Assembly (NCBI GenBank): GCA_029891385.1
Contig: CM057231.1
Coordinates: forward strand, 65,455,103 to 65,519,102
Reading direction: 5' to 3'
DNA from: Erythroxylum novogranatense
Lineage: Eukaryota; Streptophyta; Magnoliopsida; Malpighiales; Erythroxylaceae
DNA: 64,000 nucleotides
Shown: piece after piece, positions 3,404 through 60,641 of the stretch
Layout of the letters: each line of letters begins with the position of its first letter
Numbering within the stretch: the stretch's first letter is position 1
Notes under the pieces: model-generated
The model's input: only the letters and a program-made list of their open reading frames with translations
Told to the model about the DNA's origin: nothing
Databases searched by the model: none
Translations under genes and position numbers: made by a program

Positions 3404-4173
3404 TTTAGTGTAGCACCCCCTCACCGCAGGGCACACATTGGGACGCCCGTGGGTCGTTCCGACGCATATCCCACGATAAGGAAGTGCTACTACGAAAATA
3501 ATCTCTAAACACTCGCATGGCATCAATACACTAAATTCCACAATATGAAATTCACTGAAATTTAAAACCATAATAATCATTCATTTATAACATCAATCCC
3601 AAAATATAGACCGATCTATCGGTTCCTACAAAGCTAAATACATCTCAAAAGGGAAACTGATATAAACGTCTATACTAAGTCATCCCAAAACAATGTTCCC
3701 AAAAGAAGTCACCCCAGCTGACCGACCTATGATCCATCGCTGTCCTTGATCACGAACACTCACTGCCGAAACGTCTATCCCGGGAGCTAGAGTCCTACCG
3801 ACGCTGTCCTGAAAAATATATTGCAATGTTGGGTGAGTTTGCGAACTCAATGAGAAACCATCATTGATGGTTCATCCAACACATGCATATACATATACTA
3901 TACCTCAAATTACACTTTAACGCTTTATAAACACTATTCACAATTTACACATTATATTATATCACACGCAATATCACAATGCGCACTTTATACTGTCACA
4001 TAATTCTCACATTACACTTCACAATTTACACAATTACAATATCACATATCAATCCACATTTTTCGTATGTCACTCGCATTCTCCATCACACTATACACTC
4101 AGATGCATATGTATGCAAAGTCTCTTGTTATGACATTGTTGTGACTGAGCATTTATATTCACATTTTTGGCAA

Positions 4174-4310
4174 GTAGGAGAGCCCTCAGGGTATGCACTA
4201 CTGCCCACTCACTTTAGGGATAGGAGAGCCCTCTGGGTATGCACTATTCCTTTTCACAATGATCACAATTTAGGCAAATAGGAGAGCCCTCTGGGTATGC
4301 ACTACTGCCG
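4174..4310. repeat. Three direct repeats (aggagagccctctgggtatgc) in solo LTR-1
   Basis: The phrase aggagagccctctgggtatg recurs at about 4176, 4222 and 4279 with one or two differences, about 46-57 bp apart. Next to it (4339-4353) lies the small inverted repeat GAGCT-CAA-AGCTC. Solo LTR-2 and LTR-3 have related GAGCT..AGCTC hairpins at the corresponding place. Confidence 0.75.
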
Positions 4311-5339
4311 ATTTGGCTCTAGGCCCTCTCACTGATAATCGAGCTCAAAGCTCTGAATCACTGTGCTCTAGTCACAACGGTAAATTTTACCGCTCATATC
4401 ATGCTAGGCATGCGCTCACACTTACACAGTCACTAGCACATTTATCTCACTTCACTCACTTGTCACAATCAGAGCTCTTATTCACAATTATATACACTGA
4501 TTCTCATTCACATGAATTCACATTTATGTAGATCACACTTGGTACAATCACTAACACTTATCGCATTTAGCTCATTCACTTCACATGTATATCACTCACC
4601 TTTACACTTAATTTATACATATTCACAGCACATATAATCACTTAAAAGCTGAGGAACCAACTAGGTTACTCACCTGTAACTTCCGAGCTACTGCCTGGAA
4701 GTCCCAGCAATATCCGTGGTCTGACGATCCAACGGAGCCTCTAAAACAATCAAACAATTTCTCATCACTAGGTGCTCAATTAAAGATATTCAATAATGCA
4801 CATGTCTTTAATTCAAACTTGTATGATGCATGTTCATGATTCTACCGGCACTAAACCCAATTCGGCTATCGCTCACTTTACAACCAAAATTCACTATTCA
4901 CTAGGTCAATAGCATTCCCTTTAATTCAATTTCACTCACTCAAACACTAATCATACTCCATTAGTTACAACGTAACTCTTTGGTCACATTAGAAACTATA
5001 ATGGACTCTCTTCGATACTTGCAATCCCGTAAATCAAAATTCAAACTCTCAATCTTTATCACAATGATAGACCTCTTTCTCTAGTTCATAACGAATCAAG
5101 TATCACCTTAATTGGAATACCATAGACCAAGATATCATCACATCAACGAAACATGTTCAAGAAAACATCTAGTTCATGTTCCTCCAAAGAATACCCTTAC
5201 TTTGACTCACTTAATCATTTCCAATTTAATACTAAAACCCATAAATTATTTGTGGAGAGATTAAGAAATGTGTTAGGAATCCAATGCTTCAAGAATCAGG
5301 TCATTTGGAGTTTTATAACTCACGTTATCCTCAAAACAC

Positions 5340-6445
5340 TGATCTATGCACAGACTGTTTTCCTTCCGTCTGATTTTTGCTTCAGCTGGTTTTCGCTTCA
5401 GCTAATTTTTGCTTCAGCTGATTTTTGCTTCAGCTGATTTTTGCTTCAGCTGATTTTTGCTTCAGCTGGTTTTTCCTTCAGCTGGTTTTCGCTTCAGCTG
5501 GTTTTCGCTTCAGCTGATTTTTCCTTCCTTCTGATTTTTGCTTCAGCTGATTTTTTTTCTGCCCAGAACATGTCCACTTATATAGATCATATCTTTTGAC
5601 TCCGATATCCAAATTGGACAAACTTGACATCTATCTCATAGAGAAAAGAAAGATCTACAACTTTCAAGAAGGAAATTGTGTCTAAATCTATCGATATCAC
5701 GTCCATATCATCTGTTTTTGCTTCAGCTGATTTTCCTTCAGCTGATTTTCGCTTCAGCTGATTTTCCTTTCAGCTGGTTTTTGCTTCAGAACATGTCCAC
5801 TTATATAGATCATATCTTTTGACTCCAATATCCAAATTGGACAAAATTGACATCTATCTCATAGAGAAAAGAAATATCTACAACTTTCAAGAAGGAAATT
5901 TTGTCTAAATCTATCGATATCACGTCCATATCGTCTGCTTTTGCTTCAGCTGATTTTCCTTCAGCTGATTTTCGCTTCAGCTGATTTTCCTTTCAGCTGG
6001 TTTTCGCTTCAGAACATGTCCACTTATATAGATCATATATTTTGACTCTAATATCTAAATTGGACAAACTTGACATCTATCTCATAGAGAAAAGAAAGAT
6101 CTACAACTTTCAAGAAGGAAATTTTGTCTAAATCTATCGATATCACGTCCATATCGTCTGCTTTTGCTTCACTGATTTTCCTTCACTGATTTTTGCTTCA
6201 CTGATTTTCCTTTCAGCTGGTTTTCGCTTCAGAACATGTCCACTTATATAGATCATATCTTTTGACTCAATATCCAAATTGGACAAACTTGACATCTATC
6301 TCATAGAGAAAAGAAAGATCTACAACTTTCAAGAAGGAAATTTTGTCTAAATCTATCGATATCACGTCCATATCGTCTGCTTTTGCTTCAGCTGATTTTC
6401 CTTCAGTGATTTTCGCTTCACTGATTTTTCTTTCCAGGACATATC
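5340..6445. repeat. About 222-bp tandem repeat with CAGCTG arrays in solo LTR-1
   Basis: A run of ttttgcttcagctgattt units occupies 5360-5560. Then four copies of a longer unit follow, each starting acatgtccacttatatag (5568, 5791, 6014, 6234; periods 223, 223 and 220 bp). Each unit carries a conserved box (catatcttttgactcc..ccaaattggacaaacttga) and ends in its own short CAGCTG array. The later units lose the palindrome (cactga in place of cagctga), so the array is degrading in its last copies. Confidence 0.9.
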
Positions 6446-6617
6446 ACCGAACACTAAAAGTTTTCTCAACCACTCATTTAACACTATAACAGAATTTATT
6501 CCTCCCCAACTACCCAGGATTTATGAACAAACACATGAAATACATCTTTCCATGAAAACGACAGAAATCTCTCAACTTTATTTCATAAATCTCTAACAGC
6601 AAGGGGGTTTCTCTAAC

Positions 6618-6624
6618 ACTTACC
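6618..6624 (-). promoter_or_regulatory. Splice-donor consensus inside solo LTR-1
   Basis: On the minus strand the sequence reads CAACAG|GTAAGT. Equivalent donors appear in LTR-2, -3, -4, -5 and the truncated LTR-6, each a few hundred bases or less downstream of the presumed promoter. This supports a leader intron beginning within the LTR. Whether it is used is not known. Confidence 0.5.
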
Positions 6625-7369
6625 TGTTGAGAACTCAAACAGATCTTCAAGCTCCAAACTCCACACGAAAAGATCAGCTTATGGATTCTCCTTAGAGTCG
6701 ACAACACCAAAGGTAGAGAAAGGTTGGTGAAAGAAAGAAAGAACACCAAAGTCCCTTAGAAGATAATTTGGGTAGGAAAGCTCTATGTCTCCGAGAGAAA
6801 AGTTTTTTTTTGGAAGAAAATGAATAAAGAAGGCTTGGACAAGACTTAACCCATCAGCCCTCAAGGAATAGTGACCACCTACTCTAGCTAGGTACAAAGT
6901 CCAAGTACACATGTCACTTTCTTAATGAATAAACTATAACTTAGTTACTTTTGAACTAACTCCATTTAGTTCTCCCCTTTCCAATATAACCAAACTATCT
7001 CCAACACTTCATTGAATTAATTCTTGCTCCCAACTATAAATATATCTTCCAATACACCATAAATTTACCAGCATATACAAATACAATAATTTCACCAAAA
7101 TTCATAATCGCAAGATTTCATTAACCCAATTATTTCAACATTTTAAATAATCACAATTCACAAAATCATCTCAATTTCACTTTTCCAAACACAATCACTA
7201 TCAAATGCCGGAACAATCATGAATACATGTCACTATGTATATGCATGTGCAAAATGATCTATCTCTCTAAAATCAGAGGCCACAAAACACTCGATCACAA
7301 ATTAAGCACTAACAACTCTACACTCATAACACGATGCTCATCGCATCGGTAACGGGATGCTACATTTAG

Positions 7370-12078: not shown

Positions 12079-12080
12079 AT

Positions 12081-23921: not shown

Positions 23922-25895
23922 TGTAGGAAAATCCCGGGAGGTACATCACATGTACCGGCAGCGGAAAACAAAAATTTTTGTTCCCGGGACTTTCCCGAAA
24001 CCCAGGATCCAGGTGTCAGTATGAAGACCTCAAACCTAAATAGCCAATAGAGACTATCTCTAAAGGTATCCACGCAGAGATCAGAAAACCTAACCGAGTC
24101 AAACTCCTTTGACCCGGAATAGCTAGAACGAATAAGAGCTGCTAGACCCTACCTACATCTGGAGAGCTTGAGATCCACGTTGGATCATGAGCTTGGAGAA
24201 GAGAACTAACGATGATGCTTGTGAGAGAAGAATGAAAAACCAATTTTTCAAAGATTTAACTCTTTAAACCTTTTTCCTTCTCCTTTCTGGAGCTCCACCG
24301 TCGACAACCACCTTCACAAGCTTCTTTTTCTAGCTTTTTAACAATTAAAGAAGACTTAAAGCTTGTGAAGGAAGGCCATACACGTGAATGGTTCTTAACC
24401 ATTCATTATTTAATAAATAAACTAAGCTTTTGAAAAGTCAAAAGCTATCATCTCTTCTCCCAAATTCCAACGTGCAAGGTGGCTTTAATTTATATAATTA
24501 ATTAATTAATTAATGATATAAATAATTGCTAAGGTCCAGTCAAACTGGGGTCGGTCCAACCGGCCTACCGGGCCCCGATGCTGAAACAGCTCCGGAAACC
24601 TTTCTTAGCAATATTGATGTCGCGATCTCATCGGGACATATCCCAATCCCATCGGGATCCATTTAATCCGAATGCTCTCCATAATTGGAACTCTGTCCAA
24701 TTACTATTTTACAGATTCTCTGAAACAATCTTATGCGTGTGACCCTTTAGGTTCCCGGTTATGTTGGCCACTTAGATTAACAATTAATCTGAGCAAGTCA
24801 TGAGCGGTATCTAGCAACACATCATGACCCCCAATTGACCGAAAAGTAATCGGTTTAATGCATTCATCACGAACCAGATCACGAACCCTTCCATAGACAA
24901 TTACTGTGCAATTCGTCCTTTCACCATCCTATACCCCACTTGGTTATGAGTATGGTCAAAGTGTCAACTCTTACTAGACCAAGTCCAGCCCAAGTGATAA
25001 CAGTTCTTGTCCTAGGACTCATTACTCTATATGTCCATGAAGACACTCTTCATGACATATTCACTCTAGCCAGAGATTTTCGAGTAATGATCCTGACAAG
25101 AGGCTATGGGTATCTCTTCTGCTAATCCAGAAGTGGTGAATCCTTTATTGGCTACTCAATTATCTTCGAATACCTCAAACTGTACCCAAACACCACCCTA
25201 TGAGTTACCTCTGGAAGGCAACAAGGAATGGAGTCAAAGCACAGGATCAGTATCCAAGATAGCCTTGAGTACCTCAAGTCTAAGGATACTTGCACCATTG
25301 CTATGATGAGATTATCACTGACACTTAGATAAGATATCCATGTGATGATCTCATGACAGTCATCCAATGAACTTACTACTACTAGTAAGCATCCATATGT
25401 CAACTCTAAATATCTCATATTTACGGTTTACGAGATCCACCGCTGATCCAATCAAGGAGTATGACATATGTTAGTCCGTCCGGGATTAATGATGTCCAGC
25501 CTCATTAATCCTATGACTAGGAAAATTTAGATCTTGACATAATTGCACATGATAGGAATCTCGAGTATGATCACATCATAATTTCCTTCATGCTATGTCA
25601 TATATCATGGACTTCATTAATTTGATTAAAGATCCAATCAATTCATAAACAATGTTCATGAACATCAAATTAATGAATTATGCCTTTTCTTTATTTATTC
25701 ATTCGATGCGCATCATTTGTGAATAAAACGCAGCTAAAGGGATTGCCTTTAGGGCACAAATAAACAATGATCAGCCCTTGAATAAGTCGACTTATCCAAT
25801 GTACAAGTCGACTTATCGGTACCGAGCAAGCATAAGTCGACTTACACATGGTACAAGTCGACTTACACATGGTACAAGTCGACTTACCACTTACA
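23922..25895 (-). repeat. Copia-2 3' LTR (element sense)
   Basis: Partner of 31717-33658. At its U3 start (plus 25780-25890) it holds five GTCGAC palindromes (aagtcgactt). A TTAA microsatellite lies near 24500. The pair differs by many small indels and substitutions, so insertion is not recent. Confidence 0.92.
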
Positions 25896-25910
25896 AATCT
25901 CCCACTTGAC
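25896..25910 (-). other. Copia-2 polypurine tract
   Basis: On the minus strand GTCAAGTGGGAGATT precedes the LTR start TGTAAGTGG. The composition is the same as the Copia-1 tract. Confidence 0.8.
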
Positions 25911-29600: not shown

Positions 29601-31703
29601 TCAATCAACCTAAACGCAATAAAGAGAAGGAATGATAGAATAGATATGCCTGCATGATCATAAGGACTTGCATGATATGCATATGGCTCCCACTAGTTTC
29701 CTAGAATCCATAACCCTCTTTACTGAATCCGAGAAACAAAGTGACATAATGTCTAGTGGGTCGATATCCGACATTGCTAAGAGTGACCTTGGGTTTACCC
29801 AACAAGCCACAACTTAGGTCAATCGGTAGGTATCGGTCATACCAATTACATCATCGATAACCGACTTTGAGAATGACCTTGGGTTTACCCAACAAGCCAC
29901 CTTAAGTCTCGGGAGGTATCGATATACCAATTACATCTTAGACACAACTATCGATCGCTCTATCAACTTGTTGATGTGTGCACTACATTGGGTATCAACT
30001 CTTTGATGCGCATACATCCGATATATGCTACCCAATTTCACCTCTGTCCACGTTGACCTTGAGTTTACTCAACAAACCAACGCTTCGGTGAAAACCAACC
30101 CATTAATCGAAAATCATATTTTCATGGTTTGAACATATCCGTATAGAGTGAGCTTGGGTTTACCCAACAACCCATCCCTATAAGAACTCTGGTTCTTACC
30201 ATATTAATGGAAGGCGTTAGTTTTCATATACCAAGGAGGGATTTAGAAACTCTAGACTCCAAGCTGAAGGATCATAGTCACTAGGACTATATGGAATGAT
30301 TTAGGTGTCATCAATCACATTGAATCAATCCTTATAATCATCCATCATCCAACTAGAGCATGTCATAAGTCGCCTTACATCAAATGCAAGTCGCCTTAAG
30401 CCACTGCCCACACACAAGTCGACTTGTCTGATATAAGTCGACTTATGCAAAAACTTTGAACAAGTCAACTTATGTACAATACAAGTCGACTTATCTAGAA
30501 ACTTTGAACAAGTCGACTTATGTATAGTACAAGTCGACTTATCCAAAAACTTTGAACAAGTCGACTTATGTATAAAACAAGTCGACTTATCCAAAAAGAA
30601 TTGCTATACTTTCTAATCGGCTAATACCTCAATCATTGCGATTCCAATTCACAACACCTACATACCTAAAGTAATATCTGATAAATTTGATGTATCAATG
30701 AACACTTCATTGATCCATGAATGCCTTATATGGTCAAACCATACATGAAAAGCTTTAAATGAGTCAAAACTCATAAATATCCAAACAATTTAAGAACACC
30801 CAAATTCTCACCCTAAGCATCTCAAGCTAGTGTATACACTCTCAAAACTACTCCGGCACTTGTCACAAAAATTGTGACGGCCAAAACAAGCAAGAAAATG
30901 AAATGTACTAACGAGACACAAATGTGACTAATTCGGCATTCAAAAATTCTTGGAAAAGCAACTTCAAGCAATTCAATTTGGCAATTATTCTACATCAAGA
31001 TAACACATTTTTAATCACATTAAAAATGCTGCAAGGCATTGGAATTGAAAAAGCAAACTCAATCAAGCCAAGCGAAACAGTCCCAACAATTTTCACCAAA
31101 ACTGTCCAGTTCTGTACATTGCTTGAAATGATCAATGAAACAATTTCAATAAATTCTGAGAAAATTATATAGGTTACTACATGTTCAGAACATGCTACCT
31201 GAATTTTTCAGGATTTTAGGCCATCAAAAACTCAGTCAACCAAAATAACAAAACCGATTAAAATTCTGTGTTCATCAACACAGCAATTCCCAACAGCATA
31301 GAATAAAATCGAAAATAAATATCCAATCACCTTGAAATCCAATTTCCATGATCACAGAAATTCACCAACATCTTTGAGACATGTAGGTGAAGGAAAATCT
31401 AGAAAACAATTTTTCTAGAATTTATTCTTGATTTTATACTACTGCCTGTTCACAGAATCGTTTCAAAAACAGCATCTGTAAGCTTAGGGAATTAATTAGC
31501 AAAACTATATCAAATCAAATCAATAAATTCTGAAAATTCATAGACATATTCTCTAACATGTTATGAACATTCCTGGGCAGAAAAATTTCGAAAAATATAT
31601 CACAATATAAATTCGAAAATCAGGGAGTATGCATGCATCAACATCAACAGCACTTAGGGTTTCTGATCTAGCTTCGGTTTTAGCTTCATACATGACACCA
31701 GAC
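29601..31703 (-). other. Copia-2 leader region with GTCGAC palindromes
   Basis: About 2.1 kb lie between the primer site and gag, without coding motifs. Two plus-strand repeats of gaccttgggtttacccaacaagccac (29785 and 29874) and related copies (30056, 30149) are visible. The GTCGAC array at 30366-30596 is listed separately. The remaining sequence (30600-31700) is AT-rich. Confidence 0.65.
30366..30596. repeat. ATAAGTCGACTTAT palindrome array in the Copia-2 leader
   Basis: Seven GTCGAC-centred palindromes plus three degenerate copies (aagtcgcctt twice, aagtcaactt once) occur in 230 bp. From 30450 they form a double unit of about 56 bp: gaacaagtcgacttatgta, nacaagtcgacttatc, then naaaaacttt. 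The frame on the minus strand (DKSTC repeated) is an artefact of this repeat. Confidence 0.9.
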
Positions 31704-33658: not shown

Positions 33659-33663
33659 AACTG

Positions 33664-34692: not shown

Positions 34693-35857
34693 TGTTGGAC
34701 CCCGATCTTTTGATGGAAATTAGAATTATTAAAATGGAATTCAATGAGTGTGTTTGTATAGGTATTGTGTTGTAGATGTTATTGTATTTAAAGGAGATTG
34801 ATGACAAATGAAGTGATTGGTTTTGATGACTTTGAAATTTGAGTAGATTTGTATGATTTATGAAAATTAAAGTGAATGGGTTGATTGAAATGGAGTTGAA
34901 AAGCAAGAAATGATTAGTGAAAGTGTTATATGTTGAAGAAAATTAGAAAGTTTGACTTTTTGGAGTAAAGAGTTGACTTTTGATTTAGGCAGATTTTGAG
35001 GAAATAATCTACATGAAATCTGTAGATTATGTTGAGAGCTTTTCGTAGCCATAAAGTATGCTATTTTTCGATATCGGGTTTGAAAGTTATGATATTTGAA
35101 AGTTAAGTGTATTTTGCCTTGATTATGGAAAATGCTCTAAGTGTAGGATTGTATATGTTGTGTTTTGAGGCGATTTCTGTACTAATGTGGTTTGAATTGG
35201 AGTAAATTGTTACGTGAAATTTATAGAAAATTTGAATAGCTTTAAAATGATGTATAATATGCGATTCTTGGTTGTGGAGGTTGAAAGATATGATAATGTG
35301 AAATTTGGATATTGCTTAGCTGTTGGCTATCAGGGCAGAAATTTCGATTAAACAATTAACTTAGCTAGAGGTTGAATTTGCTTTGGAGTTTTTCATGACA
35401 TTGTAGAGCTTGTTTTTATCTTTCCATTGATATAAGGCACGAAAATATTGGACAAGGGAGTAAAAAGTTATGATTTTTAGAAGTTCTGATGTTGTTTAGT
35501 GTGAAGCTGACCGATCAGTCAGCTTTGTGTGGAGTTTTTGACCCATTTAAAGGTCGATATGATTCTTAAAGCCTTCATGAAAGTTGTAGAGGGTTCTTGT
35601 ACCTTTCCATAGACACCAAGTTTGTCAAATTTGGAGTTCTGGATCAAAAGTTATAATGTTTGCAAGTTTTTGTACTGTTGAGAAATTGTCGATCAGTCAT
35701 CTTTGTGTAAACTTTTGATCCCTTTAGAGTCCGAGCTTGCTTGTGAGTCCTTCTTGAAAATTGTAGATCTGTCTTTTATCTTTCCAACAAAACAAACCGT
35801 GTCTAATTTGGAGCTCGAAGTCAAAAATTATGAGGGTTTGAAGTTTAAAGGTCGGAT

Positions 35858-35945
35858 TGGGTGCCGACCGACCTCTGTTGGCCAAGCCGACCTTTGTTGG
35901 CCGACCGACCTCTGATGGCCGACCGATCTTCGTTCTGGCCGAGCT
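35858..35945. repeat. GGCCGACCGACC repeat array in solo LTR-4
   Basis: Four or five repeats of gaccgacctctgttggcc / gccgacctttgttggcc occur in 80 bp, followed by ggccgagctttg. A conserved box (gagcataacttcttcatccgacatccgatcgatctgatt) starts about 45 bp downstream at 35988. Confidence 0.85.
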
Positions 35946-35999
35946 TTGATTTTTCTGGCTGAGCTCTGACCTCCTTTCACTCTTTTGAGCATAACTTCT

Positions 36000-36720
36000 T
36001 CATCCGACATCCGATCGATCTGATTCTTTTTGGAAATTAAACTGGAGACATGAGGCTACAAATGTTATGAAGGAGCCGATCGACAATGTAGCCTCCAAGA
36101 CTTTCAAATACGGGTCGGAAGTTAGGTATAGAGTTCAGTCTTAACTTTGTAATGGTATGAGTAGTGTTCAGTGTTATAGGTCGTTAGAGCTCGGATTGAG
36201 TTGATTCTTTTTGTAAATTAAACTAGAGACATATATCTACAATTCATCTGAAGGAGCCGATCGATAATGTCGCCTCTAAGACTTCCAAATATCGGTCGGA
36301 AGTTCAGTCTCAGTTCTGTAATGGCTGAACAATTTTCAGTATTTTGGGTATATCTCGATCGCTAGAGCTCGGATTGAGCTGATTTTTTTTTATAATTAAA
36401 GTAGAGAGATGAGGCTACAAACGTTATGAAGGAGCCGATCGACAATGGAGCCTCTAAGACTTCCAAATATAGGTCGGAAGTTAGATGTAGTGTTCAGTCT
36501 CGGTGTTGTAATGGCTAAACAATGTTCAGTATTTTGGAGATATATCGATCGCTAGAGCTCGGATTGAGCTGATTCTTTTTGAGAATTAAAATAGAGACAT
36601 GGGTCTACAAATGTTATGAAGGAGATGATCGACAATGTAGCCTCTAAGACTTCCAAATATGGGTTGGAAATTAGGTGTAGTGTTCAGCCTCGGGTCTGAA
36701 GAACAAACTTCAGTATTTTG
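36000..36720. repeat. About 180-190-bp tandem repeat (four copies) in solo LTR-4
   Basis: The phrase gagctcggattgagctgatt recurs at 36187, 36365 and 36555, and a diverged first copy begins near 36005 (catccgatcgatctgattc). Each copy continues with agagacatgaggctacaaa, gaaggagccgatcgacaatg and cctctaagacttccaaat. The array ends about 250 bp before the TATA box. Confidence 0.9.
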
Positions 36721-36972
36721 AAGATATCTTGAGCTATAGAGCTCCGATCGATCCTATTCTTGAAGCGATGGATTCGTAAGACATAGAGGAAAATTTCTTT
36801 AGAAGAAAGTTTTATCAAATGACTTCATTTACCTGATCGAAATAATCAGACAAGATGTCAATTTTAAAGACCAATGAAGGGGCAATTTTGGAAGTTTACT
36901 TAAAGAGTTAAGTTTATAGGCTTAAATGGAGGGGCTTATGGGTCATTCCTTATTCATTAATTGACCTAGCAC

Positions 36973-37220
36973 TATAAAAGCAAGGTGGCTGTAGTTGTTT
37001 GGAGGAGAATCACGATTATTGCCCAAAAGACTTGAAAGAAATAAGAGGAGAGAAGAGAGAAAGCTTGTTTCGGATGGGAGAAGAAGAAGAAGCTAGGTCA
37101 CGATTTTTGCTGGATTTTAAGTGTGATTTTGATATTTCTTCATGGAGGAAAAACGTGGAGGATGACGAGAGCTCCAACATGAGCTAAGAAATCCGAAAAT
37201 TTGCGAAGGATGAGGTAAGA
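36973..37220 (+). promoter_or_regulatory. TATA box and leader exon with splice donor in solo LTR-4
   Basis: TATAAAAG at 36973-36980 is followed by a 235-bp leader with a 62-codon frame (36999-37187) and a donor-like gag|gtaaga at 37215. The same layout (TATA-like, short leader frame, GGTAAG) is seen on the minus strand of LTR-5 and LTR-6. The frame itself is not claimed as a gene. Confidence 0.6.
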
Positions 37221-39483
37221 CCCTAAATTTTGATTTGTGAATTTTGGAAGATTGTTGGTTTAGAATCATGGAAAATGATATGGGTTTGTGTATTGTGGAG
37301 TCGATTTTGGTGATTGCTTAGTATTATGGATTTAATTTTGGATGGAAATTAATTAGGGTTATGCCTAATTTTATGAATTGGGGTTTTTGGAAATTGGTGA
37401 TTTAGATAGCTTGAATTTATATGGAATTGGTGAATTCCTAAGTTAATTTTGAAGATTATGCTATTTATGAGGTCGAATTTGGATTAATTTGGTTTAGGAA
37501 ATTTTTTGTGGAAGAAAGAAGAAGGCTTTGGAGCAATTGAGGCACAAAGCAAGTTGTTAGCATGAATATGAGGTGGGTAGTATATTTATTTATTGAATTT
37601 TAAGCTAAAAATGTGAATTTGAAAATTCAAGAAGCAAAGTTTTGAGAAATGAATGTTTATAAAAATGTTTGGATATTATGATTTTGAAGGATTAATTTCC
37701 TTATGTTAGAAATGATTGTTAGAAAATACAAGATTTATGAAAATCATGTTTTTAGACAATTTGAGCAATGTGTTTTATGAAACTATATATGTTTTGATTT
37801 AAGTATGAAAGAAATAATTGCATTCATGTTTATACGTTTGATTTATATGTGATTAATTGATTTATTGAATATGATTGTATATGTGGAATATGCATGTGTC
37901 AAGCTTTTTGACACAATTTGATGTTATGATTTGAAAAATGTGAAAAATCAAGATTTTTGAAAAGTGCCTTCAGGCAATCTGAAATTCCGTTTTGCTTATG
38001 TGCTATGTGGGTTTGGTCAGGTCCTTTTGTGAGTCAGTGCACTGTCTCTACCTGTTTAAGCCTTCGCTCGATTGCCCGCAAGAGGCAATGGAGTTCCGAT
38101 CACGGACTCCCTTCACGGCTGCACATGACCACTATGCGGAAATGTGCAGTACGTCCTGTTATGGACCAAACCAAACCATTTAATGTGTTATTGTGATTTG
38201 TTTTGGATGCCGCCGTATAACCCGCAAACACACGCCGTAGTATAACCTGCAAACATCTACGGGTGGGGTGTGGGGTCCAACATCAAACCATTCTGTTATG
38301 TTATGTGGTTTTTGTGATGCATTCATGTTTAAAGCTGTGCATGATTGGTAAAAAGTTTGAGAATTTGAGAAATGAGAAAGTGAATTTTCAATCATGAATT
38401 TCGGAAACTGTTTATGAATGTTTTGGAAAGTTTGAAAATGGGTTTTTGGATAAATTTTCGAATGGGAAATGTTTGAAAATTTTGAAAAGATAATTTTCTC
38501 TTATGTTTCAATTTATAAATATATTATCCACGAGCTTCCGAGCTCACCCCCCTTTCATCCCCATCTCGGGTTTTGAAGCGGAGATCGGATGAAAGAATGT
38601 GAACATTTGGTTCGTTTATGCATCGTTTGCATTGTATTATGAATTGAGATTTGAAATATTTTGTAAATGGCTTGAATTGCCGTTAAGTGATTATGATGTA
38701 TTTCAGAATGTATGAAGATTATGAATGAATGTATGAGAGTATGAAATTGTATATGGAATTGTGTATAAGTTTGGGAATGAGATTGAACTATGAGAATAAT
38801 AGATTGAATTACAGTTATGAGAATGTTTTAGAATTAGGATTGCGATTGTTTCTGCTGAGATCCCGGACGGAGGGTCCGGTTGATTTTAATGATGGTATGA
38901 TTGTTTGGGCTTTTAGAAGTGTATTTTTTAATACTTTGCAGGTTTGGGTTAGAATAAATCAGATCGTTATCTTTTGAAATTTTGATAAAATTAGAATAAA
39001 AATGTAATTCTGATTTGTATGGATAAATAAGAATATGATCGATTTAGAGATTTGCATGAGAATGATTTTTCCAAAAGTGGAATTTGGTTGTGTGATTTGA
39101 ATGAGGTTGACTAATGAGGTAAGAAATGAGAATAAGAAAAGAAAAGAAAAATTTATACCGGATTTTGGAACGTCTTAGGGTTTCCAACGCGATTATGTTC
39201 ATTCGATCGTTTTCTTTGATTATTGTTCTCGGATGTCGGATATGTTTCAGTTTAATTGATTATTTCGTTTATCCCCGCCTTATGATTCGATTCTATTGAT
39301 TTCTGTCGATTTGGTATTCGATTCCGATTTGCATTTGCTTCGAGTATGTGCTTCGCTTTCGATTCTTATGCTTTGTTTTCTGATTCGAAATTTCGATGCG
39401 AAATTTCCGTTTCCATTCGATTCTATTTTCTGTTCTGCTTTTCCGGTTGGGATCCGGTTTCCAGATCGGGTCCCAACAGGAGG

Positions 39484-42061: not shown

Positions 42062-45000
42062 TGTTGGCCCCCGTTTTCGGAGCTCAACTCTTATACAGAA
42101 ATCATAACTATTATCGCTTCCTTTTCTTGCTTTGATACCACAAATGTTGAGACCGAAACCCAACCGCTTAAACTAAACCATAACACTTATACTATTGGTT
42201 AAAACATACGACAGGAAAGAACGGATCATAAAGCTTGCGAAAGTCAAAGTGAGCGAAATCCATGAAATCAAATCGGATCAAACGCGAAGAAATCGAAAGC
42301 AAATCGAATGGCTCGGAAAGCATAAAACGGAAAACAAATCAAAAGCGGAATCAAAGGAATAGATTTACAAACCTCGGAATCAAAGAAACCAAAATGGTTC
42401 AATCAGACTGAGTGGTCAAGTTCTGATATCTGAAAACGTATACTTTAGAAAAACTAGCGTTGGAAATCACAAAGACACTTGATCTGAACCAATCCAATTC
42501 GGTATAAAAAATTTTCTTTGTCATTTTACACATCTTTATTCAAAGCAATACACTTTTCCCTTTTTGGAATTCATCAATTCCATAACCTCAATTCATTTTA
42601 TGCTTCATATACGAATCATAACCATCAATTTTAAACATTATTTTAGTTTTTCCTTTGCCATAAGGCACCTTACGCACATATCAATAAATCCACAATTCAT
42701 ACACAATAAGCACTTCAATATCTCAAATCCATCTACACAATCATCGAACCTCCTTTCCGGAATCCAAATGCAAACAAACACAATCATATACATATAGAAC
42801 TTCAATAGCCAAGTAACATTCACATTGATCTCATCTCATCCATATACCATTCACGTACTATATCCATACACAAATTTATATCCCAATTCCATACGCAAAA
42901 TCCATAACTCATTCAATCACATTCATATACAAAAGTCTAAAATCCTTAACAAAAGTCTAAAATCTTATTCTTATAAACATTTAACTTAACCCTACAACAT
43001 ATATACAAACGAACGAAGGTCTTGATTTGCTTTCATCCAATCTCCTTCTCGATACTTGGAGATGGGGATGAAAGGAGGTGAGCTTTACAGCTCATGGATA
43101 ACATGTTTATAATTAAATAACAAGCAAAAACCATTTTAAAGACTCATTGACATGGTACAATTTCAAAACCATAGTAATTTCGCACTTAAAAATCATAAAA
43201 CACTTATTTCATGAAAATCTCAATTTGTCAAACAATTAAAAATAGAACAAACCATGTATGCATCAATCTTGGCAAACATGTCATGAGCACATCAGCACAT
43301 CAAATTGATTCTGGTGGATCCAAAACAGAACGTACTACGCATTTTCACATAATGGTCTTGCGTAGCCGTGAACTTATGGGAGTCCATGAAGGAACTCCAT
43401 GCCACTAGCGGGTAGGCGGGAGAAGCCTTTAACTTGGTCAACATGCACATGACTTAACTTAGGGGACCACCACAAACCCACATAACACATATTTCATAAC
43501 TTGTAAACTTGTTGCCCAAAAAGGCACTTTTCTTGAAAACTTGCTTTTCATATACTTGACTATATCTTGAAAACCATTCTTGAAAGCATGATTTCATAAA
43601 CATGCATCTTTTCAAAGATATCACTTTCAAAATAACTTTTCATAAATCATCACACAAATCATGAAGCAAACATATAGTAGATTTCACAAATCATTTATAA
43701 ACAATAGATGCAACAATTATGATGCGATTGAAAATCAAAAATCTTTTTCAAAAATGCAGCTCTTAGACCCTAGTTTATTGAACGTGCCTATTACCTTGAA
43801 GGGGTAATACATTTAACCCTCATTAGCCATCATCTATATTCATCTTCATTCGCATAACATCCCAAAAATTTCCTCACAATTTATTCAATGGTGTGGCCAT
43901 ACCAATCACTCACCATAATCAAACTCATTTCTTATAACTTCCTAGAATAAATTTAGGAAACCTCAATTTGGAATTCTATAGATGAAGATATGTTTCATAA
44001 ACCAAAATATAATCATGCCCCAACATGCTCTCCCAATCGACCCCTCACATCCTTCCACTCAATCTTTTTGAATCCGAAACCAATGGCTATAAATTTTTTA
44101 CGAAGGTAGAAAACCGTGTTATAAATCTAACGCTTCAAGAATCACCTTAATTGGAGGTCGGACGAAGAAGTTACGACTAAACAAATTCAATCGGTTCATG
44201 TCCAAACTTACATTGTACATGCCCTGGTGCAAATGCCATAACTCTCACTACAGAGGTTGGATTGAATTTATTTTTAGACGGCTAGAAAGAAGACTTCTAA
44301 GAATACAACTTTCCTGAATACCACAAAATGAAATTCTTTCGTTTAAAGGGTCAAAACATGGACCAAAAGAACTAACTTGGACAGGCCGTGTAAGTGCAAC
44401 TTTCAGGTGAAACCTCCTATACAAAGTCCTATGATCATATCTCTCAATTCTGACATCCAAAAATTTCATACTTTATAGCGTTAGAAAGATATAAAGACAT
44501 ACTACAACTTTCATGAATGAAACTTTGGCTAATTCCATCTAGGCATATACGGTTTTTCCTCAGAAATCAGCATACACATTTTATTCTCATGCAAAACTTA
44601 CAATTTATCCCAACTTCACTTTCTCTACTACAACATCATTCAAAACGATTCAACTTCCCATTGGAATTTATCCAACACTCAACCTCAATTCATATGACTC
44701 TTTATATTCCATAACATCATATCATTCACCACAAATCCTATCTTTCTTTTCCATACTTTTCTTATATCTATACATAACAACATTTCATATTCATGGCTCA
44801 TCAACTCAAATCATATCCTCCATACACAATTCACATACTAAGCATAAAATAAATTCTCAAATCATTCAAAACAATAATGCAATATTTATGAAGCCATTTA
44901 GATCATTTTATTCTCTTGATTCAAAACAAACTTTATTCCTTGCTTTTTCGGAAAACATATTATGGCTCATTTCTCAAATTGTAAACATGAAACCCACCTC

Positions 45001-47203
45001 ATTTCCATGCTTGCACACCTTGCTCAAAATGCGTTTCCTCTAGCTCCTCTTGTCTCCCTTGAATTTCTTCAAAATCACAAAACCCTAAATCAAAAGGGAT
45101 CTTAAAAATTGGAAAACCTAAGGAAAAAAAAACATGAAATTTATCCTAGAACAACCATTCCCATACTTTTCCTAAGTCATTTGAACCAAAACCCCTTCAA
45201 AATTCCATAAGATTTGAAACAACTTACCTTAAATCTCTTCCCATGATTTTTGTGTTCTTTAGCTCTAAAGGAAGATCAAACCTTCCTCTTTCTTGTTTTC
45301 CTTCTTGAAAAACTCTTCTAAAGCAAGAAAAAGATGAAACCGTAAGTTTGTTCTTCTTTTTCTCTTCTTCTTCTCGTAACCGAACCACTCTCCTCCTTTT
45401 CTCCTTCAAAATGTCATTCCCTCTTCTCCTAACACACTCCAAGCTTTAATTCTTTCATTTAATGAAGCCAAAAGACCAAATTACCCCTCCTTATAAGCCT
45501 TACAACTTAACAACTTAAGTGATCTTCCCACTTTGCCCTTATTTTATCTTTAAAACTGACATCTTAACTCCTTATTTTGATCAGGTAAATGAAGCAATTT
45601 GACAATAGTTCCTTCTAGAAAATTATTCCTCTATGTCTTATGTTTCTAATGACACCAAAAACAATCAATTTGGTTTAGAAATCCGAAAGTTATGGCTAAA
45701 ACATTTTTAGACTATTGCTAAACCGAGACTGTACACTATACCCAACTTCACTCCAGAAATTGAACATCTTACGGACTGAATTGAAATTTGATTCCTTAGA
45801 TAACTTGTAGCCCCATGTCTTTAGTTTAATTAGGAACAAGAATCACCTAATTTGGATCTCCACAGAGCGATATATCACCAAAATACTGAAGTATGTTCAG
45901 ACTTTTTCAACCAATCCTCTCACTTTGATCTAATCACTCTTTTTCAATTTAATCTCAAAATCCATAAATTTTCATGGAGAGGTAAAGGAATGTCTTAGGA
46001 ATCCAATGCTTCAAAAATCAGGTCAATCGAAGATCAGACGGAAAATTTATAAGCAAAAGAGTGAAGAGAGGTCGGGTCAGGGAAACATGACTACTAATGC
46101 ATGTAAAAATTACATGCATTAGTCGACTAGTCGAAGACTATTAGTCGACTAATCGAAGACTATTAGTCGACTACAGTGGTTGACCTGGAAAACTCTGGTC
46201 TTTTTTCTTCCGACAACCCAACTTTCCTAATTCATAACTTCTTACTCAGAACTCCAAATTGAACAAACTTGGTATCAATGGAAAGCTAAAAGAAAACCCT
46301 ACAACGTTCATGAAGAGCTTAAGAACCAGATCTGCCTCTAAAGGAGTCAAAAACCACCTCAAAGTATCTATCAGATAAACATCATCCCACATAATGAAAG
46401 AAACTCTAAACATCATAATTCTCTACTCCATTGTTCAAAAATGTCATACTTTATATCAATATAAAGATAAACACAGAATCTACAACCCTTATGAAGACCC
46501 TAAGAACAATTTCTACCTCTATAAGGGTCAAAATCCAAATCGAAGTTACTGCCCTGAAATTTTCATACTAAACAACATACAACCTTCGAAAATGCATATC
46601 TTTCAATTTGTACATCCAAAAATGGCATATTATGCATCGTTGAAAAGATCAAAATCTAAACTACAATCTTGAAGAAGACTTTTTGGTCAAATTCTAACTC
46701 TATGAGGGAAAGAACTTCACTCAAACTTTCTGCCCATGATTGGCATTTTGACAACACCTCCCCCAAACTTCAAGTATCCATATTTCTTCAAACACCGACA
46801 CAATTTACAGCACCTGCACAAATACTTCAATCAGCCACATTCTCCAATTCCCACATTCAAACACAATGCACAATACCTCATTTTAAAGCTATGAAAATAC
46901 TCCATAATCCTTAAGAAGGTTAAAAAAGCCAATCAATTCCACATAAGTCCATAAATTTGTCTCAAAAGAAAGGAATACAATAAACACCATTTTATTCATT
47001 GGACGAGACCATGTTCAACATCATACTACCTCATCTTTTTATCAAACATATGCAAAACACAAGGAAACTCAAATGTCTTTCATTTCACCAAATGCTCATA
47101 GATTCATTTATACTTTTCATTCATTTCAAGGAATCATACCATATTTCCTCATTTAATTTCATTTAATAATTTCTAATTTCCAAAAAAAGTTCGGGGTCCA
47201 ACA
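42062..47203 (-). mobile_element. Solo LTR-5 (5142 bp) with TSD CTAAC
   Basis: The ends are TGTTGGCCCCCG and CGGGGTCCAACA, the same terminal type as LTR-4. CTAAC flanks both sides (42057-42061, 47204-47208). The uninterrupted target (gtaagtctaacacagaaag) is seen at the next unit junctions. Minus sense is inferred from a TATA-like cttataag (45490-45497), a leader frame (45442-45224) and a GGTAAGT donor (45222-45228). The region 43020-43090 matches 38520-38600 of LTR-4 in reverse, confirming kinship and opposite orientation. A perfect hairpin and a TAGTCGACTA array lie at 46093-46174. Confidence 0.9.
46093..46174. repeat. Perfect 14-bp hairpin joined to a TAGTCGACTA array in solo LTR-5
   Basis: Bases 46093-46106 and 46110-46123 are exact reverse complements around an AAA loop. 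The right arm runs into the first of three palindromes (ttagtcgactag, ttagtcgactaa, ttagtcgactac), separated by tcgaagacta. The conserved box lies about 60 bp to the left (45990-46050). Confidence 0.95.
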
Positions 47204-53908: not shown

Positions 53909-54585
53909 TGTAATACCCCACTCCCGTATCACCCGAACCCGGCATCGATGGTGATATCCGAGTCCGTGCCCTGCGAGGGTGGCGTGCTACATCACTCAAT
54001 CAAAACTTAGTATAATTTTTTTAAAAACACAACATACACTATGCAGAAATCAAATAACATATCACCAGTAAGTATAATGACTGCCCCTTTATAAATACAA
54101 ATTAATTCAGTCCGGTGACTTTACAAATTGACCGAATCATTTGTACAAAAATTTAGAAAATACAATTTTATACAGAATTTATCAGACACTAATGCAGACG
54201 TGAACTGATCCCTGACCTCTTCTCTCACTCTCATGCGGTTGCTATACGTCCGTTTCCTAACGGGGTATTCTTCTGTGTCCTGAAAAATAATTGCAAATTT
54301 TGGGTAAGTTTTGCGAACTCAGTCAGTGACCATCATTGATGGTTCACCCAATCACATAACACAATTTTCATACATCTCACATTATTTCATAGTGCACATA
54401 TTCACAATATTTCACATTCACACATTTACAGAATTCCACGTTCACATTATTCATAATCGATACATGCACATGAGACTCACTTTCTAGTTCTTATTTTGTG
54501 GTGACCGAGTGCCTAAACTGTCCCTTGTAGGGCTCATTAATAACTTTCCCTTATCCATTGGTGGATACAGGGCTCATTAAACGTT

Positions 54586-54649
54586 GAGCCTGAGGCTCTG
54601 AATCCTTTATGAGCTCGAAGCTCATTTTCACTCGTTGAGCTTAAAGCTC
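54586..54649. repeat. Three small hairpins with compensatory stems in solo LTR-3
   Basis: GAGCC-TGA-GGCTC (54586), GAGCT-CGA-AGCTC (54611) and GAGCT-TAA-AGCTC (54637) follow within 64 bp. The C:G to T:A change in the stem keeps pairing. A single related hairpin exists in solo LTR-1 (GAGCT-CAA-AGCTC) and a decayed one in solo LTR-2 (GAGCTCGAGGCTC, 57471). Confidence 0.85.
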
Positions 54650-55489
54650 TGATCGGTCGCGACTCTGGTTATAGCAACCATTATATGTCATGCACTTATG
54701 CCATGTGATGCAGCAATCACTTCCACTCACTTTCACATATTATCAAACCGTAGTCCGACACATATCAATCACATCACCCAAATTTCATAATTTCACATTG
54801 CTCAAAATAACATATGATCACAATCAAACACATGTGTCACAAATTATTACATCTCAAGCATGTAGTTCACAAATTCACAAATAAGTAGCACTTCTATGTC
54901 ATAGCTCCCCAATACATCGGACTTTCTGTCCGGAATCCACAATCAGAAGCATAATCCCACCATTATTCTCCACAGAATTATAAACACAGAATTTTAAGCA
55001 AATAATAATTGAGAAACCATCTAGGTCACTCACAAATAGCTTCCGAACTAATGCCTGGAAGTCTCGGCAATGTCAGTGAGTTGATGTTCCAAAACGCCTC
55101 TATAACAGTCAAAATATACAAACATTACCAAATGTATAATTAGAAATATTTAAAAATGCACATGTAGCAATTTAAAATGTGTACAATGTATGTTCGTGAC
55201 AATTTTAGAAACTCATTGAAATTAAAATCACTCACTTCGGACCTCTATAGGTCCAATTATTAAAAAAACATGGACCAGAAAAATAATTATCCGGTCCCCT
55301 CACTTTCACCTAATTAATCCACATCAATTTGAACTCTAAAAATTCACAATTTCACATAGAAATAAAATTAAAGGACTCACGAATCTTATGCCTCGAGAAT
55401 CAGGTCAATCGGAGGTCGGACGAAAAAGTTATGCACAAAAGAATGGGAAAGGGGTTTGGGTTGGGCCGAATCGGGTCGGCCCGTGTCAG

Positions 55490-55610
55490 ATCGAGTCGAC
55501 CTGTGCGGCTCTCCCTCGCAAGCCATCGGCTCGTGAGGGTGAGCTTAACATTCGCCCTCGCGAGGGCGGGTCTGACTCTCGCCCTCGCGAGCCCTCGCTT
55601 GCCAAATCTG
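55490..55610. repeat. CCTCGCGAGGG palindrome array in solo LTR-3
   Basis: Copies are ctccctcgcaagcc, ggctcgtgagggtg, gccctcgcgagggcg and gccctcgcgagccctcgc. The intact form is a 12-bp palindrome, and two copies show CpG-type changes (CTCGCAAG, CTCGTGAG). It stands beside the conserved box at 55380-55440. Confidence 0.9.
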
Positions 55611-58309
55611 ATTTTTTTTTTAACATTTAATACCTTCTCTTCTTCCATATAACACAATTCTTCATAAAAATGTCCAAAAATCACAAATGAGGTCTCATTG
55701 GAAAGATCACAGAAAACCCTACAAGTTTTATGAAGGACTCACAAACTAATTTCACTCCTAAGGGTGTCAAAAATGCAATCAACGTTACTGCCTACTCATT
55801 ATCATCCAAAACAATGCAACATTTTTCCAAAAATCATATCTTCCTATTCCCTTTGCCAAAAATTTCAAGCTTTATATCAAAAGAAAGAGAAAAACATATT
55901 CTATAACTTTCATGATAACTTGGAAGCAAATTCAACCTCTAAATAGATCAATTTCTCAACCAAATTTTCTGCCCATATAAGTGTCATCCTCAACAACAAC
56001 ACAATCTTCCAAAATTCATAACTTCCTATCCCATTTTCCAAAAATTCCATACTTTACCTCACTGAAAAGATCAGAAAACATGATACAATTCTCATGAAGG
56101 ACTTAAAAGCAAATTCCACCTCTAACTAAGTCAAATTCGCACATGATTGTGCTGCCCTGTTAAAGAGTATTAAAACAACATATCACCTAAATCATAACCA
56201 TACTTTAACAATTCATAACTTACAATCCCTACATCCAAAATTAGCTTATTATACCTCATTACAAAGCTAAGACATTTCTCTAAAACTTTCCATAAGATCA
56301 CTTGAGCTAATTTAAACGATAACAGTCTAGAACTAGCTTCAAAGCACAGAAATCACAAAACCTATACTTACAGACATTTCACACATAAAGCACATTCATT
56401 CTTTGAAAAACCATCTGAAAGTTCACAAGTCATAACTTTCAACCTCAAGCTCAAAAAATATAATACTTTGTGGCGATAAAAAGATAATAAGAAAATCTTC
56501 AACTTTCATGAAGACTAATTTCATAAAATCTGTTTACTTTAGCCTAGAACAATTCTCGAAAGTTTCAGGTCACAAATCTCTACATGCTAGAATTACCACT
56601 ATTCACCCTGCACATATATCTCACTTTCAAAGCAAAATTCGAAACCCTTCAAGCCACAATTAGACAGCACTTCCTTCATAAAAATTTTAGCCAAACTTCT
56701 CAAGTTTAATTCAAGTCAAACCTCATCTCAATAGCATAACCATATAAAAAATTATGTGTAGCGCCCCCTCACCGTAGGGTACACATCGGGACGCCCAAAG
56801 GTCGCTCCGACACGTATCCCACGATAAAGGTGCACTACCAGAAAATCTTTGACTGTAATCCACATGGCATCGCAATAATTAAAACCATAATATATCAAAA
56901 ATCAGTAAATTTTAAAATCCAAAATAATCTTGATACATTCATCCAATATCAGAATAGACAAGTCTATCAGTCCCCTAAACAACACCAAAAGGAAACTGAT
57001 ACAAGCATCTATCCTAAGTCATCCGCAAAAGTCCCACCCAGCTGATCGACCTGTGTGCCATCGCTTCTCTTGCCAGCACGCTCGCACGGCAGGAAAAGAC
57101 TATCTCTGGAGCTAGGGGTCTACTCTATCAGTCCTGAAAAATAGGTTGCAATTTTGGGTGAGTTTGCGAACTCAATGAGAAACCATCATCGATGGTTCAC
57201 TCAAATCATGCATTACGCATATTGCGTACAGCATGGCAGTATTCAATTTATCATATAACAATTTACAGTATCATATCACAATTTACAGTAAATCATGCCA
57301 TCACGTAATCAGTCATTGTCACAAATCAGTTAATCATGAAATTGCAATGCATATGTGACTCTTTTCCAGTTATTCAGTGTTGTGCCCAAGCGCTCGGTCG
57401 ATGTCGATATTTAGTGGGGGCGTCGTCGATTTCTCTCCTCGGGTTCGAGGCCGGTCGATCTGATATTAGAGCTCGAGGCTCATTTCAGTAAAAATCGCGA
57501 CTTGGGTCACAACGTTCATTATCTGATCATGCATTTATGCATGTAATGCGATGTTCAGTAATTTATAGTGTACGACTATAAAAGCCCAGTATTGCCATTC
57601 TCAGTTTCATACAGTAGTCCAATCCAATACAGTAAAAGCATGAAATTCGCTCCTATACATTTCAGTAATCATGTAGTTCACCTTTGCATGTAGTCATACA
57701 GAGCATTTAAGCAATCAGGAATTTGAGAAACCAACTAGGTTACTCACCTGTAACTTCCGAGCTACTGCCTGGAAGTCCTAGCAATGTACGTGGAATGACG
57801 ATCCAATGGTGTCTCTATAACAGTAAAATACAGTCCCATTACTAGATGCCCAATTAAACAATTCAGTGATGCATATGTCTCAATGGAATTATGTACAATG
57901 CATGTTCACGATTTTCGGCGCTAAAACCCAATTTTGAACTCTTATGCCCCATTCTAACTCTTTGTCCAATTGGATCAACACTGGTTTGATTCAAATCCTA
58001 AAATTCAATTCAATTTCCTCGATTCGTATACCCTATAGTAATTCCATAACCATTGGGTCTAAACCTCAATTGAAAATCCCAATTGAAACTCTACTTATCA
58101 TAATTCAATACTTAGGTCACTATAGGAACCATAATTGACCCTATTCTCTAAGAATCAGGACCATTTAAATTAAATTCCGACTCTCATATATTTCTTCAAT
58201 TGTAGACCTCTTTTCCTAGTTCATAATGAATCGAGAATCACCTCAATCGGAGGTCTATACCATAAGTTATGCCCAATAAACTAAAAATCAACCTATCAGA
58301 AAACTGCTC

Positions 58310-58540
58310 TTCGCCGCGACCTACATTCCTCGCCGCGGCGTACAGAAGGTTGCTCGCCGCGGCGTGAAGGACGCTTGCCGCGGCGTGCGTCCTCTTCACG
58401 GCTCGCCGTGGCATAAACAACGTTCGCACAGGCATGAAACCATCGCGCCATGCATGGCGTCTCATTCCTTCGCCGTCATGGCATGAAAGATCGAATTATT
58501 CGTCGCAGCGAGGCTGCGCCAGACGTCGCGATCTCCGATC
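58310..58540. repeat. CGCCGCGGCG palindrome array in solo LTR-2
   Basis: Copies are tcgccgcgacc, ctcgccgcggcgtac, ctcgccgcggcgtgaa, ttgccgcggcgtgc and ctcgccgtggca, followed by weaker forms down to gacgtcgcgatc (58534). CpG decay is visible. The conserved box (agaatcacctcaatcggaggtc, 58229-58252) lies just to the left. Confidence 0.9.
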
Positions 58541-58919
58541 GGTTTTTCCTCTTCTCTCTCTAAAAACCAGCATTAAACACTCCCATCTACCCATTCAAGC
58601 ACATTAAATACCATAAATGCATCAACTAACCATTAATAAAAACATTAAAGCCATAAATACTTACCAATCGAATATCAAATTCCACAAATCCCTCAAATCT
58701 CCGTAAACCCTAAAATCCTTCAATATCAACGATTAACCACTCTCAAAGCTTCTCAACCTTCATCAATCACAATAAACAAGTTATCTTTGCACAATGAGGA
58801 GAAAACCACAAGGAAAAATCGAAGAACCTCACCGATGGGAGGAATCGATGAACACCGTGGGAGGAGGAAGAGAAGAAACGATAATGCTTTAAAAAAATCC
58901 CCAAAATTTCAAACCTAAC

Positions 58920-58927
58920 TATTTATA
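58920..58927 (-). promoter_or_regulatory. TATA box of solo LTR-2
   Basis: On the minus strand it reads TATAAATA, a strong plant TATA match, about 490 bp inside the sense start of the LTR (59412). In this family the palindrome array lies downstream of the TATA box, unlike LTR-4 and LTR-5. Confidence 0.6.
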
Positions 58928-60641
58928 GACATAGGTCTCCAAATCAGTTCAAATTTCAGTCTTTAAATTTCAATGGCTCAATATTTTTATTTCCTAATAG
59001 TATAACTCTAATTTTTCCATTGCCATTGGACAATTCTTTCGATCTTATACTGATCGATCGATTCATCACTCCAAATTTTCGGTCCGGGCATTTTCTCCCG
59101 AATTTCCCAAAAATTTCCTATAAGTCACTATCAATAGCCAATCACACTTAAACTATTCTAAATCCATTACCTGAACCCAATTACTCCTAATTTCTCAATC
59201 GATTGCAATCCAGTCAGTTCAGTCAGTCCATGCTCACAATTAAAATACCGGAAAACCATGAATGCATGTACCTATGAATAAATGCAGATGCTATAAACCT
59301 GTTCCTCTATAATTAGAGGCCAGCAACATGCTCAATCAGTGAATGGAATGAAACCTATCAGTCTGACTCAATATTATCATAATGCCCTTGCTAACAGTAA
59401 CGGGATGTTACATTATGACCTAAACATTAAAACATATTCACATTCCATTTTTCTAGCTTGTCCACCTAACTCTACTCCTATCATTCCAATACCATTTCTA
59501 CACCAATAAGCATCCAATTTAGTCAAGAAATCAGCCAAAATTTCATCAAGACCTTCATTTGAACAAATAGCCATAAAATGGCAGCACACACATACAATTT
59601 TCTTTCTTCACTAAACACTCATTTAACATCATCAAACTTAATCTTAAGCACTTAATTCACATACTACACATGCCATAACATTCATCTTCAATCACTCTTA
59701 AATCAACCAAGAAAATAACCTACCCATTAACACCAAATACAAGTTCATGCAATTAATGCGCAATAAATCACAATAAGTGGATTTAACTATGAATTTATAC
59801 CTAAAGCACAATTCTTACCTATTAAAACCTTCAAATCTTCCAAAACCACAAACTCTCAAATTTCCTTCACCACACCCACGGCAATCATCATCATCACAAG
59901 GCTTAAGTTTGGATTTATGTGTGAATAGAGGAGGAGCAAGCAAGTAACAAGGAAGAGCTTTTTGGTGTGGAGGATGGAGAACCAATGAAGAAGAAAAGAG
60001 AAAGTGAGAACCTACAGATGAGAAGAGAAGGGAAACTTTCAATTTCAAGCAATTTTTAACTCCTCCTAATGGAAACATCGAGAAAGAGGTCCAAAAGGCT
60101 AGGTTAAAATAATAAAACCATTAAGTTTAGGACATAGTTAGGCAAGTGACAAGAGTCACTTGCCATATGTCTTGTTTTTAAGCACTCTTAAAGTCTCTTT
60201 CCAAAAAAAAATTAATTTCTACTCCAAATTCTAATGGCTCATATAAAAAAATCCTAAAATCATAAATTTAATTTTTCAGTGCCATTAGACAGTCATTTCT
60301 AGTACCGAAAACCAATCAGTCCGCCACTTGGCAATTGTTCCGATTCAAAAAAATTTTCCGAAAAATTTCTAAAATCTCCCAAAAATGTAAAACACACAAA
60401 AAATCCACTCCAATTCAAATTGCAAGCACAAAATCATATTTTTTTCACAATAAACACATTTATAAACACATATGCCGGGAAATGTCATGAATGCATGTAC
60501 AATCATGTGCATGTGCAAAAATTTCTATTCATGTATATATGGAGGCCATATTATGCATGAACATAGACAAGTCTAAACACTCATAACCCGTTCCAAATTA
60601 TTATTTTACCTTTCTCATCAGTGATGGGATGTTACATTTCA

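What the first reader, a model, noticed from the sequence alone, without database searches (positions are those of the whole stretch)
3409..60636. Different palindromic or repeated arrays at one equivalent position in five divergent LTRs
Seen: in solo LTR-1, -2, -3, -4 and -5 a short array stands directly next to a conserved box (plus reading in LTR-2/3/5: gaatcaggtcaatcggaggtcgg then aagttatg; reverse in LTR-4; a diverged form in LTR-1). The box is shared but the motif differs each time: CAGCTG (5360-6440), CGCCGCGGCG (58310-58540), CCTCGCGAGGG (55490-55610), GGCCGACC (35858-35945), TAGTCGACTA (46119-46174). Order and spacing (about 30-60 bp) are kept. A slot that is fixed while its content is replaced suggests a fast-changing cis-element, for example a binding or dimerisation site under turnover. 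Palindromes in LTRs are known for Sireviruses, but this slot-and-swap pattern in long gypsy-like LTRs is one I do not recall being described.
Basis: partly seen in the sequence, partly recalled or inferred. Interest (0 to 1): 0.88.

Follow-up and report, generated by a model that had tools for sequence, protein, structure and literature searches.

The report
Swappable palindrome arrays in plant retrotransposons
In this plant genome, long retrotransposon ends share one fixed spot that often carries a short array of mirror-symmetric DNA words; the word is replaced from family to family, which looks like a fast-changing landing site for a DNA-binding protein, although that function is not proven.

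Summary
The core observation survives a whole-genome check. In 48 of 623 box loci, exact palindromes of 10 bp or more are enriched 0-200 bp after the box (43 seen, 8.3 expected), and fold z-scores are low there but not in four control windows. By eye 34 of 48 loci carry arrays of eight motif classes; 14 carry none. Trees of both flanks need repeated motif changes. Within the window the claim is weaker: LTR-4 is not palindromic, LTR-3 is weak, and the exact box is only in LTR-3. One word, AAGTCGACTT, is shared with a Copia element and forms 61,504 close pairs genome-wide, against 1 for one control palindrome. I read the slot as a modular array of symmetric protein-binding sites, comparable to Sirevirus palindromes, Tnt1 U3 modules and VANDAL/VANC arrays. 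Function is inferred; hairpin/small-RNA roles and neutral turnover remain possible. LTR-1 copies differ 13 times more at CHG sites, probably a base-calling artefact, so CAGCTG variation inside that family is not trustworthy.

The parts
3409..7364 (-). solo LTR-1 (TGTA class; sense taken as minus); TSD TTTAG
   Evidence: sense by analogy with L109
5293..5332 (+). diverged box of LTR-1
5360..6440 (+). slot of LTR-1: a first CAGCTG array and further ones inside 4.3 tandem units of 223 bp
56757..59412 (-). solo LTR-2, TSD TTATG, nested in LTR-3
58236..58275 (+). box-like sequence of LTR-2
58310..58540 (+). slot of LTR-2: CGCCGCGGCG-type array
53909..60636 (-). solo LTR-3, interrupted by LTR-2; TSD TTTCA
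55397..55419 (+). exact box GAATCAGGTCAATCGGAGGTCGG
55490..55610 (+). slot of LTR-3: CCTCGCGAGG-type array, weak in the window
34693..39478 (+). solo LTR-4 (TGTTGG class), TSD GGAGG; TATA-like site at about 36972 on plus
36004..36026 (-). box of LTR-4, 3 mismatches
35858..35945 (-). slot of LTR-4: GGCCGACC repeats, not a true palindrome
42062..47203 (-). solo LTR-5 (TGTTGG class), TSD CTAAC
46016..46038 (+). box of LTR-5 (diverged)
46119..46174 (+). slot of LTR-5: ATTAGTCGACTAAT array, 22-bp period
25784..25885 (-). AAGTCGACTT array at the sense 5' edge of a Copia LTR (LTRs about 23922-25897 and 31717-33660)
30416..30588 (-). AAGTCGACTT array, 7 copies, in the internal part of the same Copia element
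33568..33648 (-). AAGTCGACTT array, 4 copies, in the other LTR of that Copia element

Best explanation
The slot is a modular cis-region inside a long, otherwise conserved LTR. It often holds several copies of a short two-fold symmetric DNA word, best explained as an array of sites for a symmetric (dimeric) DNA-binding protein that acts on LTR expression or silencing. Shown: the fixed place, the arrays, different words in related LTRs, and the sharing of AAGTCGACTT with a Copia element. Inferred: that a protein binds, that it matters for expression or escape from silencing, and that the word is replaced under selection (host repression or a change of partner protein), with array growth by tandem duplication and word swaps by recombination or template switching at the conserved flanks.
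For: Exact palindromes 0-200 bp after the box in 48 loci: 13 and 30 against 3.2 and 5.1. Flanks 86-87% identical with unrelated slots: L043/L047 (0.87, slot 0.27), L044/L072 (0.86, slot 0.29). Both flank trees need more motif changes than the minimum (17 against 10; 14 against 9), and starred branches force at least 4 changes for GTCGAC in each. In the GTCGAC class the outer letters co-vary across the 10-bp word (22 of 34 against 14.4) and hardly beyond it (16 of 34 against 14.4); exact palindromes 22 of 57 units against 10.8 shuffled, 0/2000; LTR-2 units 16 of 74 against 8.4, 4/2000. AAGTCGACTT pairs 61,504 genome-wide; one control palindrome, AATCCGGATT, 1. Spacings of the 78 listed pairs: 58 at 18-22 bp, 20 at 26-32 bp, none elsewhere in the allowed 15-40. 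The same word stands in a Copia LTR pair and interior.
Against: 14 of 48 box loci have no array. LTR-3-type units show no co-variation (15 exact palindromes of 113 against 16.5 shuffled), and LTR-2 units no excess of complementary cells (242 against 243.4). The one-sided word AAGTCGACTA forms 1,494 + 1,481 pairs, about as many as the symmetric TAGTCGACTA (3,055), so symmetry is not strict. Loci are related by descent, so units are not independent. Some palindromes are long: exact 24 and 26 bp in L047, a 30-nt near-palindrome in L072. The slot lies downstream of a TATA-like site in LTR-2 and upstream in LTR-4. Slot identity is about equal to the upstream control at flank identity 0.60, 0.80 and 0.90 or more. 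No binding data.
Confidence: 0.42

Rival explanations
1. Hairpin region as proposed for maize Sireviruses: the arrays fold in RNA, feed small RNAs and mark the LTR for silencing; turnover is escape from these small RNAs, or a cost borne for a cis-regulatory role.
For: Slot z-scores mean -2.47, 58% below -2, against 0.05, -0.12 and -0.29 in three downstream windows and -0.62 upstream (n 47-48). Exact palindromes of 24 and 26 bp in L047. Sirevirus palindromes lie in a fast-evolving cis-region and are small-RNA hotspots (PMC5311732 and PMC10760457, passages).
Against: Mismatches in near-palindromes show no excess of G-U over A-C in the sense strand: in box orientation G.T 17, A.C 10, so sense G.T 10, A.C 17 (sense). 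By class, in box orientation: GTCGAC G.T 11, A.C 17 (which in sense favours G.T, 17 to 11), LTR-3 type 27/30, LTR-2 43/23. The test is small. A palindrome folds whatever it is for. No small-RNA data here.
Confidence: 0.22
2. Neutral micro-satellite turnover: palindromic seeds are amplified by slippage or template switching in an unconstrained spacer between conserved tandem units, with no function of the word.
For: LTRs contain ~180-223-bp tandem units; array length varies among near-identical LTR-1 copies; 14 of 48 loci lack arrays; LTR-3-type units decay without co-variation.
Against: Most other bins of the same LTR stretches are near or below baseline for palindromes, one (+1300) is not. 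The 42 tandem arrays of the window are not palindromic overall (Fisher p 0.096), so amplification alone does not make palindromes. One 10-bp word with differing spacers occurs in 61,504 pairs with two preferred spacings among the 78 listed.
Confidence: 0.25
3. Self-recognition of genomic RNA (palindromic kissing sites, one word per family).
For: Self-complementary words that differ between families.
Against: The same word is shared by Copia and by two deep LTR clades, which a self-recognition code should avoid.
Confidence: 0.05
4. Assembly or base-calling artefact.
For: LTR-1 copies differ at CHG sites at 0.192 per site against 0.0147 elsewhere, with indels.
Against: It can explain changes inside CAGCTG units; different words between families recur in copies on different contigs and cannot come from it.
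Confidence: 0.06

Closest known systems
Sirevirus palindromes (maize Ji, Opie, Giepum; Copia)
   Same: Palindromic motifs clustered in the LTR cis-region, high sequence variability there, small-RNA hotspots (PMC5311732, PMC10760457; passages only)
   Different: Here the host elements are not shown to be Sireviruses; a flanking box is shared by loci with different words and, in related form, by two LTR-end classes (TGTA and TGTTGG); no small-RNA data
Tnt1 superfamily U3 modules (Tnt1A/B/C, Retrolyc1, Retrosol)
   Same: Regulatory LTR segment diverges or is replaced while neighbouring parts are conserved, read there as modular evolution and possible escape from host control (PMC1838419, passages)
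   Different: That text has no hit for palindrom; here the variable piece is about 50-300 bp (longer in LTR-1) inside a 2.7-5.1-kb LTR and holds palindrome arrays
VANDAL / VANC motif arrays in Arabidopsis
   Same: Short motif in dense tandem arrays in noncoding parts, motif differs between related families, spread by tandem-repeat formation (PMC5735166, PMC10398659; passages)
   Different: VANDALs are not LTR elements (recalled) and encode the binding protein; VANC21 motif YAGTATTAY is not palindromic; no partner protein is known here

Membership tests
Sirevirus palindromic cis-region | Copia element of the Sirevirus lineage | tested here: inconclusive
   All five slot LTRs are solo; in the stretch between L003 and L004 no ORF of 100 aa or more in the 5 kb read
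Sirevirus palindromic cis-region | clustered palindromes in the LTR | tested here: met
   (not LTR-4, weak for LTR-3)
Sirevirus palindromic cis-region | small-RNA hotspot | not testable with these tools
   no small-RNA data
Long-LTR Gypsy (chromovirus or other) element | Gypsy-order pol genes | tested here: inconclusive
   no pol found in L109 (one search read two plus frames only, the element lies on minus); nothing else of an interior was fetched
LTR retrotransposon | TG...CA ends with 5-bp TSD; tRNA primer site next to the LTR | tested here: met
   TSDs; LTR end + TATG + TGGTATCAGAGC in one TGTA-class element, L109 minus strand, (reading as an initiator-Met primer site is recalled)
LARD (large non-autonomous LTR element) | long LTRs and a non-coding interior | tested here: inconclusive
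   two box copies 8.1 kb apart, no ORF of 100 aa or more in the 5 kb read; LTR borders not both mapped
VANC-type target array | array bound by an element-encoded anti-silencing protein | not tested
   no binding data; no partner protein was sought
VANC-type target array | family-specific short motif in dense array in noncoding DNA | tested here: met
   family-specific only in part, since AAGTCGACTT is shared

The most novel reading that the evidence does not exclude
One plant genome uses a small set of symmetric DNA words as a shared docking code for retrotransposons of different superfamilies: Copia elements, long-LTR (perhaps non-autonomous) elements and Athila-like elements carry arrays of the same or analogous palindromes, and a conserved LTR cassette lets families change their word when host or partner proteins change. 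This would be a retrotransposon counterpart of the VANC system, possibly with hijacking of one element's factor by another.
Probability: 0.18. Interest if true: 0.87.

Novelty: new variant of a known kind. Interest (0 to 1): 0.62.

Why it matters
If the words are binding sites, the slot is a natural record of an arms race written in one fixed place of many LTR copies, with the conserved box as an anchor for collecting it. It would let one ask directly which plant proteins read retrotransposon LTRs and whether unrelated elements share a factor. Even if neutral, it names a reproducible hotspot of modular LTR turnover and a word (AAGTCGACTT) with over 60,000 paired occurrences in one genome.

Tried and rejected
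Palindrome test on 42 non-overlapping tandem arrays of the window: not significant overall (Fisher p 0.096; 9 of 42 below 0.05, five of the nine from LTR-1), so the idea that every array here is palindromic is rejected. G.U test for RNA hairpins: no clear support, and small. Comparisons of neighbouring copies for slot mutability: mixed. Slot less changed than flank in L003/L004, L062/L063 (no array), L097/L098 and L084/L085 (array lost); more changed in L044/L045 (interrupted), L067/L068, L080/L081 (slightly), L091/L092 and L105/L106; I could not prove that these are LTR pairs, and CHG errors confound the LTR-1 ones. IMG/VR search for a box piece gave nothing; for the paired AAGTCGACTT one contig (L120), not followed. 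Literature searches for this pattern were seen as listings with starts of abstracts, at most 20 titles each; none of the listed titles describes it. Bousios 2016 (PMC4728375) is not held, so the main Sirevirus paper was not read. Motif classes of the 48 loci were set by eye; L039 was put under none, and L045, L050, L061, L064 and L070 are degenerate or interrupted arrays put under a class. Dropped rows: C1:68356566, C1:68370628 and C1:77653154 among the first 51 listed box places; wLTR2, L013, L045 and L050 in the downstream tree (anchor score under 30; 57 of 61 rows kept). Only 100 of 623 box places were listed, and those taken are from C1 and C2. LTR-4 copies were never obtained.

Unanswered (not completed), the genome search. 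So pair counts for CGCCGCGGCG and ACGTCGCGAC and the LTR-4 search were not obtained.
Full report
Setting. The window is C8:65455103-65519102 of a 1.30-Gb, 267-contig genome. It is rich in retrotransposons. They fall in two classes by their ends: LTR-1, -2, -3 read TGTA...TACA, LTR-4 and -5 TGTTGG...CAACA. In one TGTA-class element from the genome the LTR end is followed by TATG and TGGTATCAGAGC on the strand opposite to the box (L109); I read this as a tRNA primer site (recalled), so the box is antisense to the element. TATA-like sites in LTR-2 and LTR-4 agree in strand with that, but the slot lies downstream of the site in LTR-2 and upstream in LTR-4.

Noticed in passing
L080-L108 against window 3409-5350: Near-identical LTR-1 copies differ about 13 times more at CHG sites outside CG context (CAG, CTG and the like), with indels: a signature of base-calling error at CHG-methylated sites, or a very odd mutation process.
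   Followed up: partly
window 1-3000 and 8005-8130: Stretches that I would call Athila-like (recalled look; ORF 1222-1983 matches PF20167 Transposase_32) with scattered CGTCGCGACG / TACGTCGCGACGTA words; exact palindromes of 10 bp or more 3 against 0.42 (150-760) and 3 against 0.37 (8005-8130) in shuffles.
   Followed up: partly
window 47930-49302, 50060-51470, 52226-53568, 61058-61825: Tandem family with ATGACGTCAT / GATGACGTCATC words in AGAAG-rich 17-, 32-, 85- and 102-bp repeats; the first three blocks are followed by 24-bp repeats that hold GATACC-TTCG-GGTATC.
   Followed up: no
window 36013-36673 and 5482-6434: LTR-4 and LTR-1 contain tandem units of about 190 and 223 bp; four LTR-1 units carry CTATATAAG followed in sense by CAGCTG words.
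   Followed up: partly
L003/L004, G000:C1:8508093 and 8516210: Two boxes 8.1 kb apart with slots 198 of 200 bases identical and, in the 5 kb read between them, no ORF of 100 aa or more: perhaps a large non-autonomous element.
   Followed up: partly
L050 and L045: Slot arrays that appear to be interrupted by other inserted sequence, in L045 one starting like an LTR end TGTAATACCCC.
   Followed up: no
G000:C1:24107882-24121719: One-sided AAGTCGACTA pairs at a regular spacing of about 1.7 kb in the listing, like a satellite or tandem duplication.
   Followed up: no
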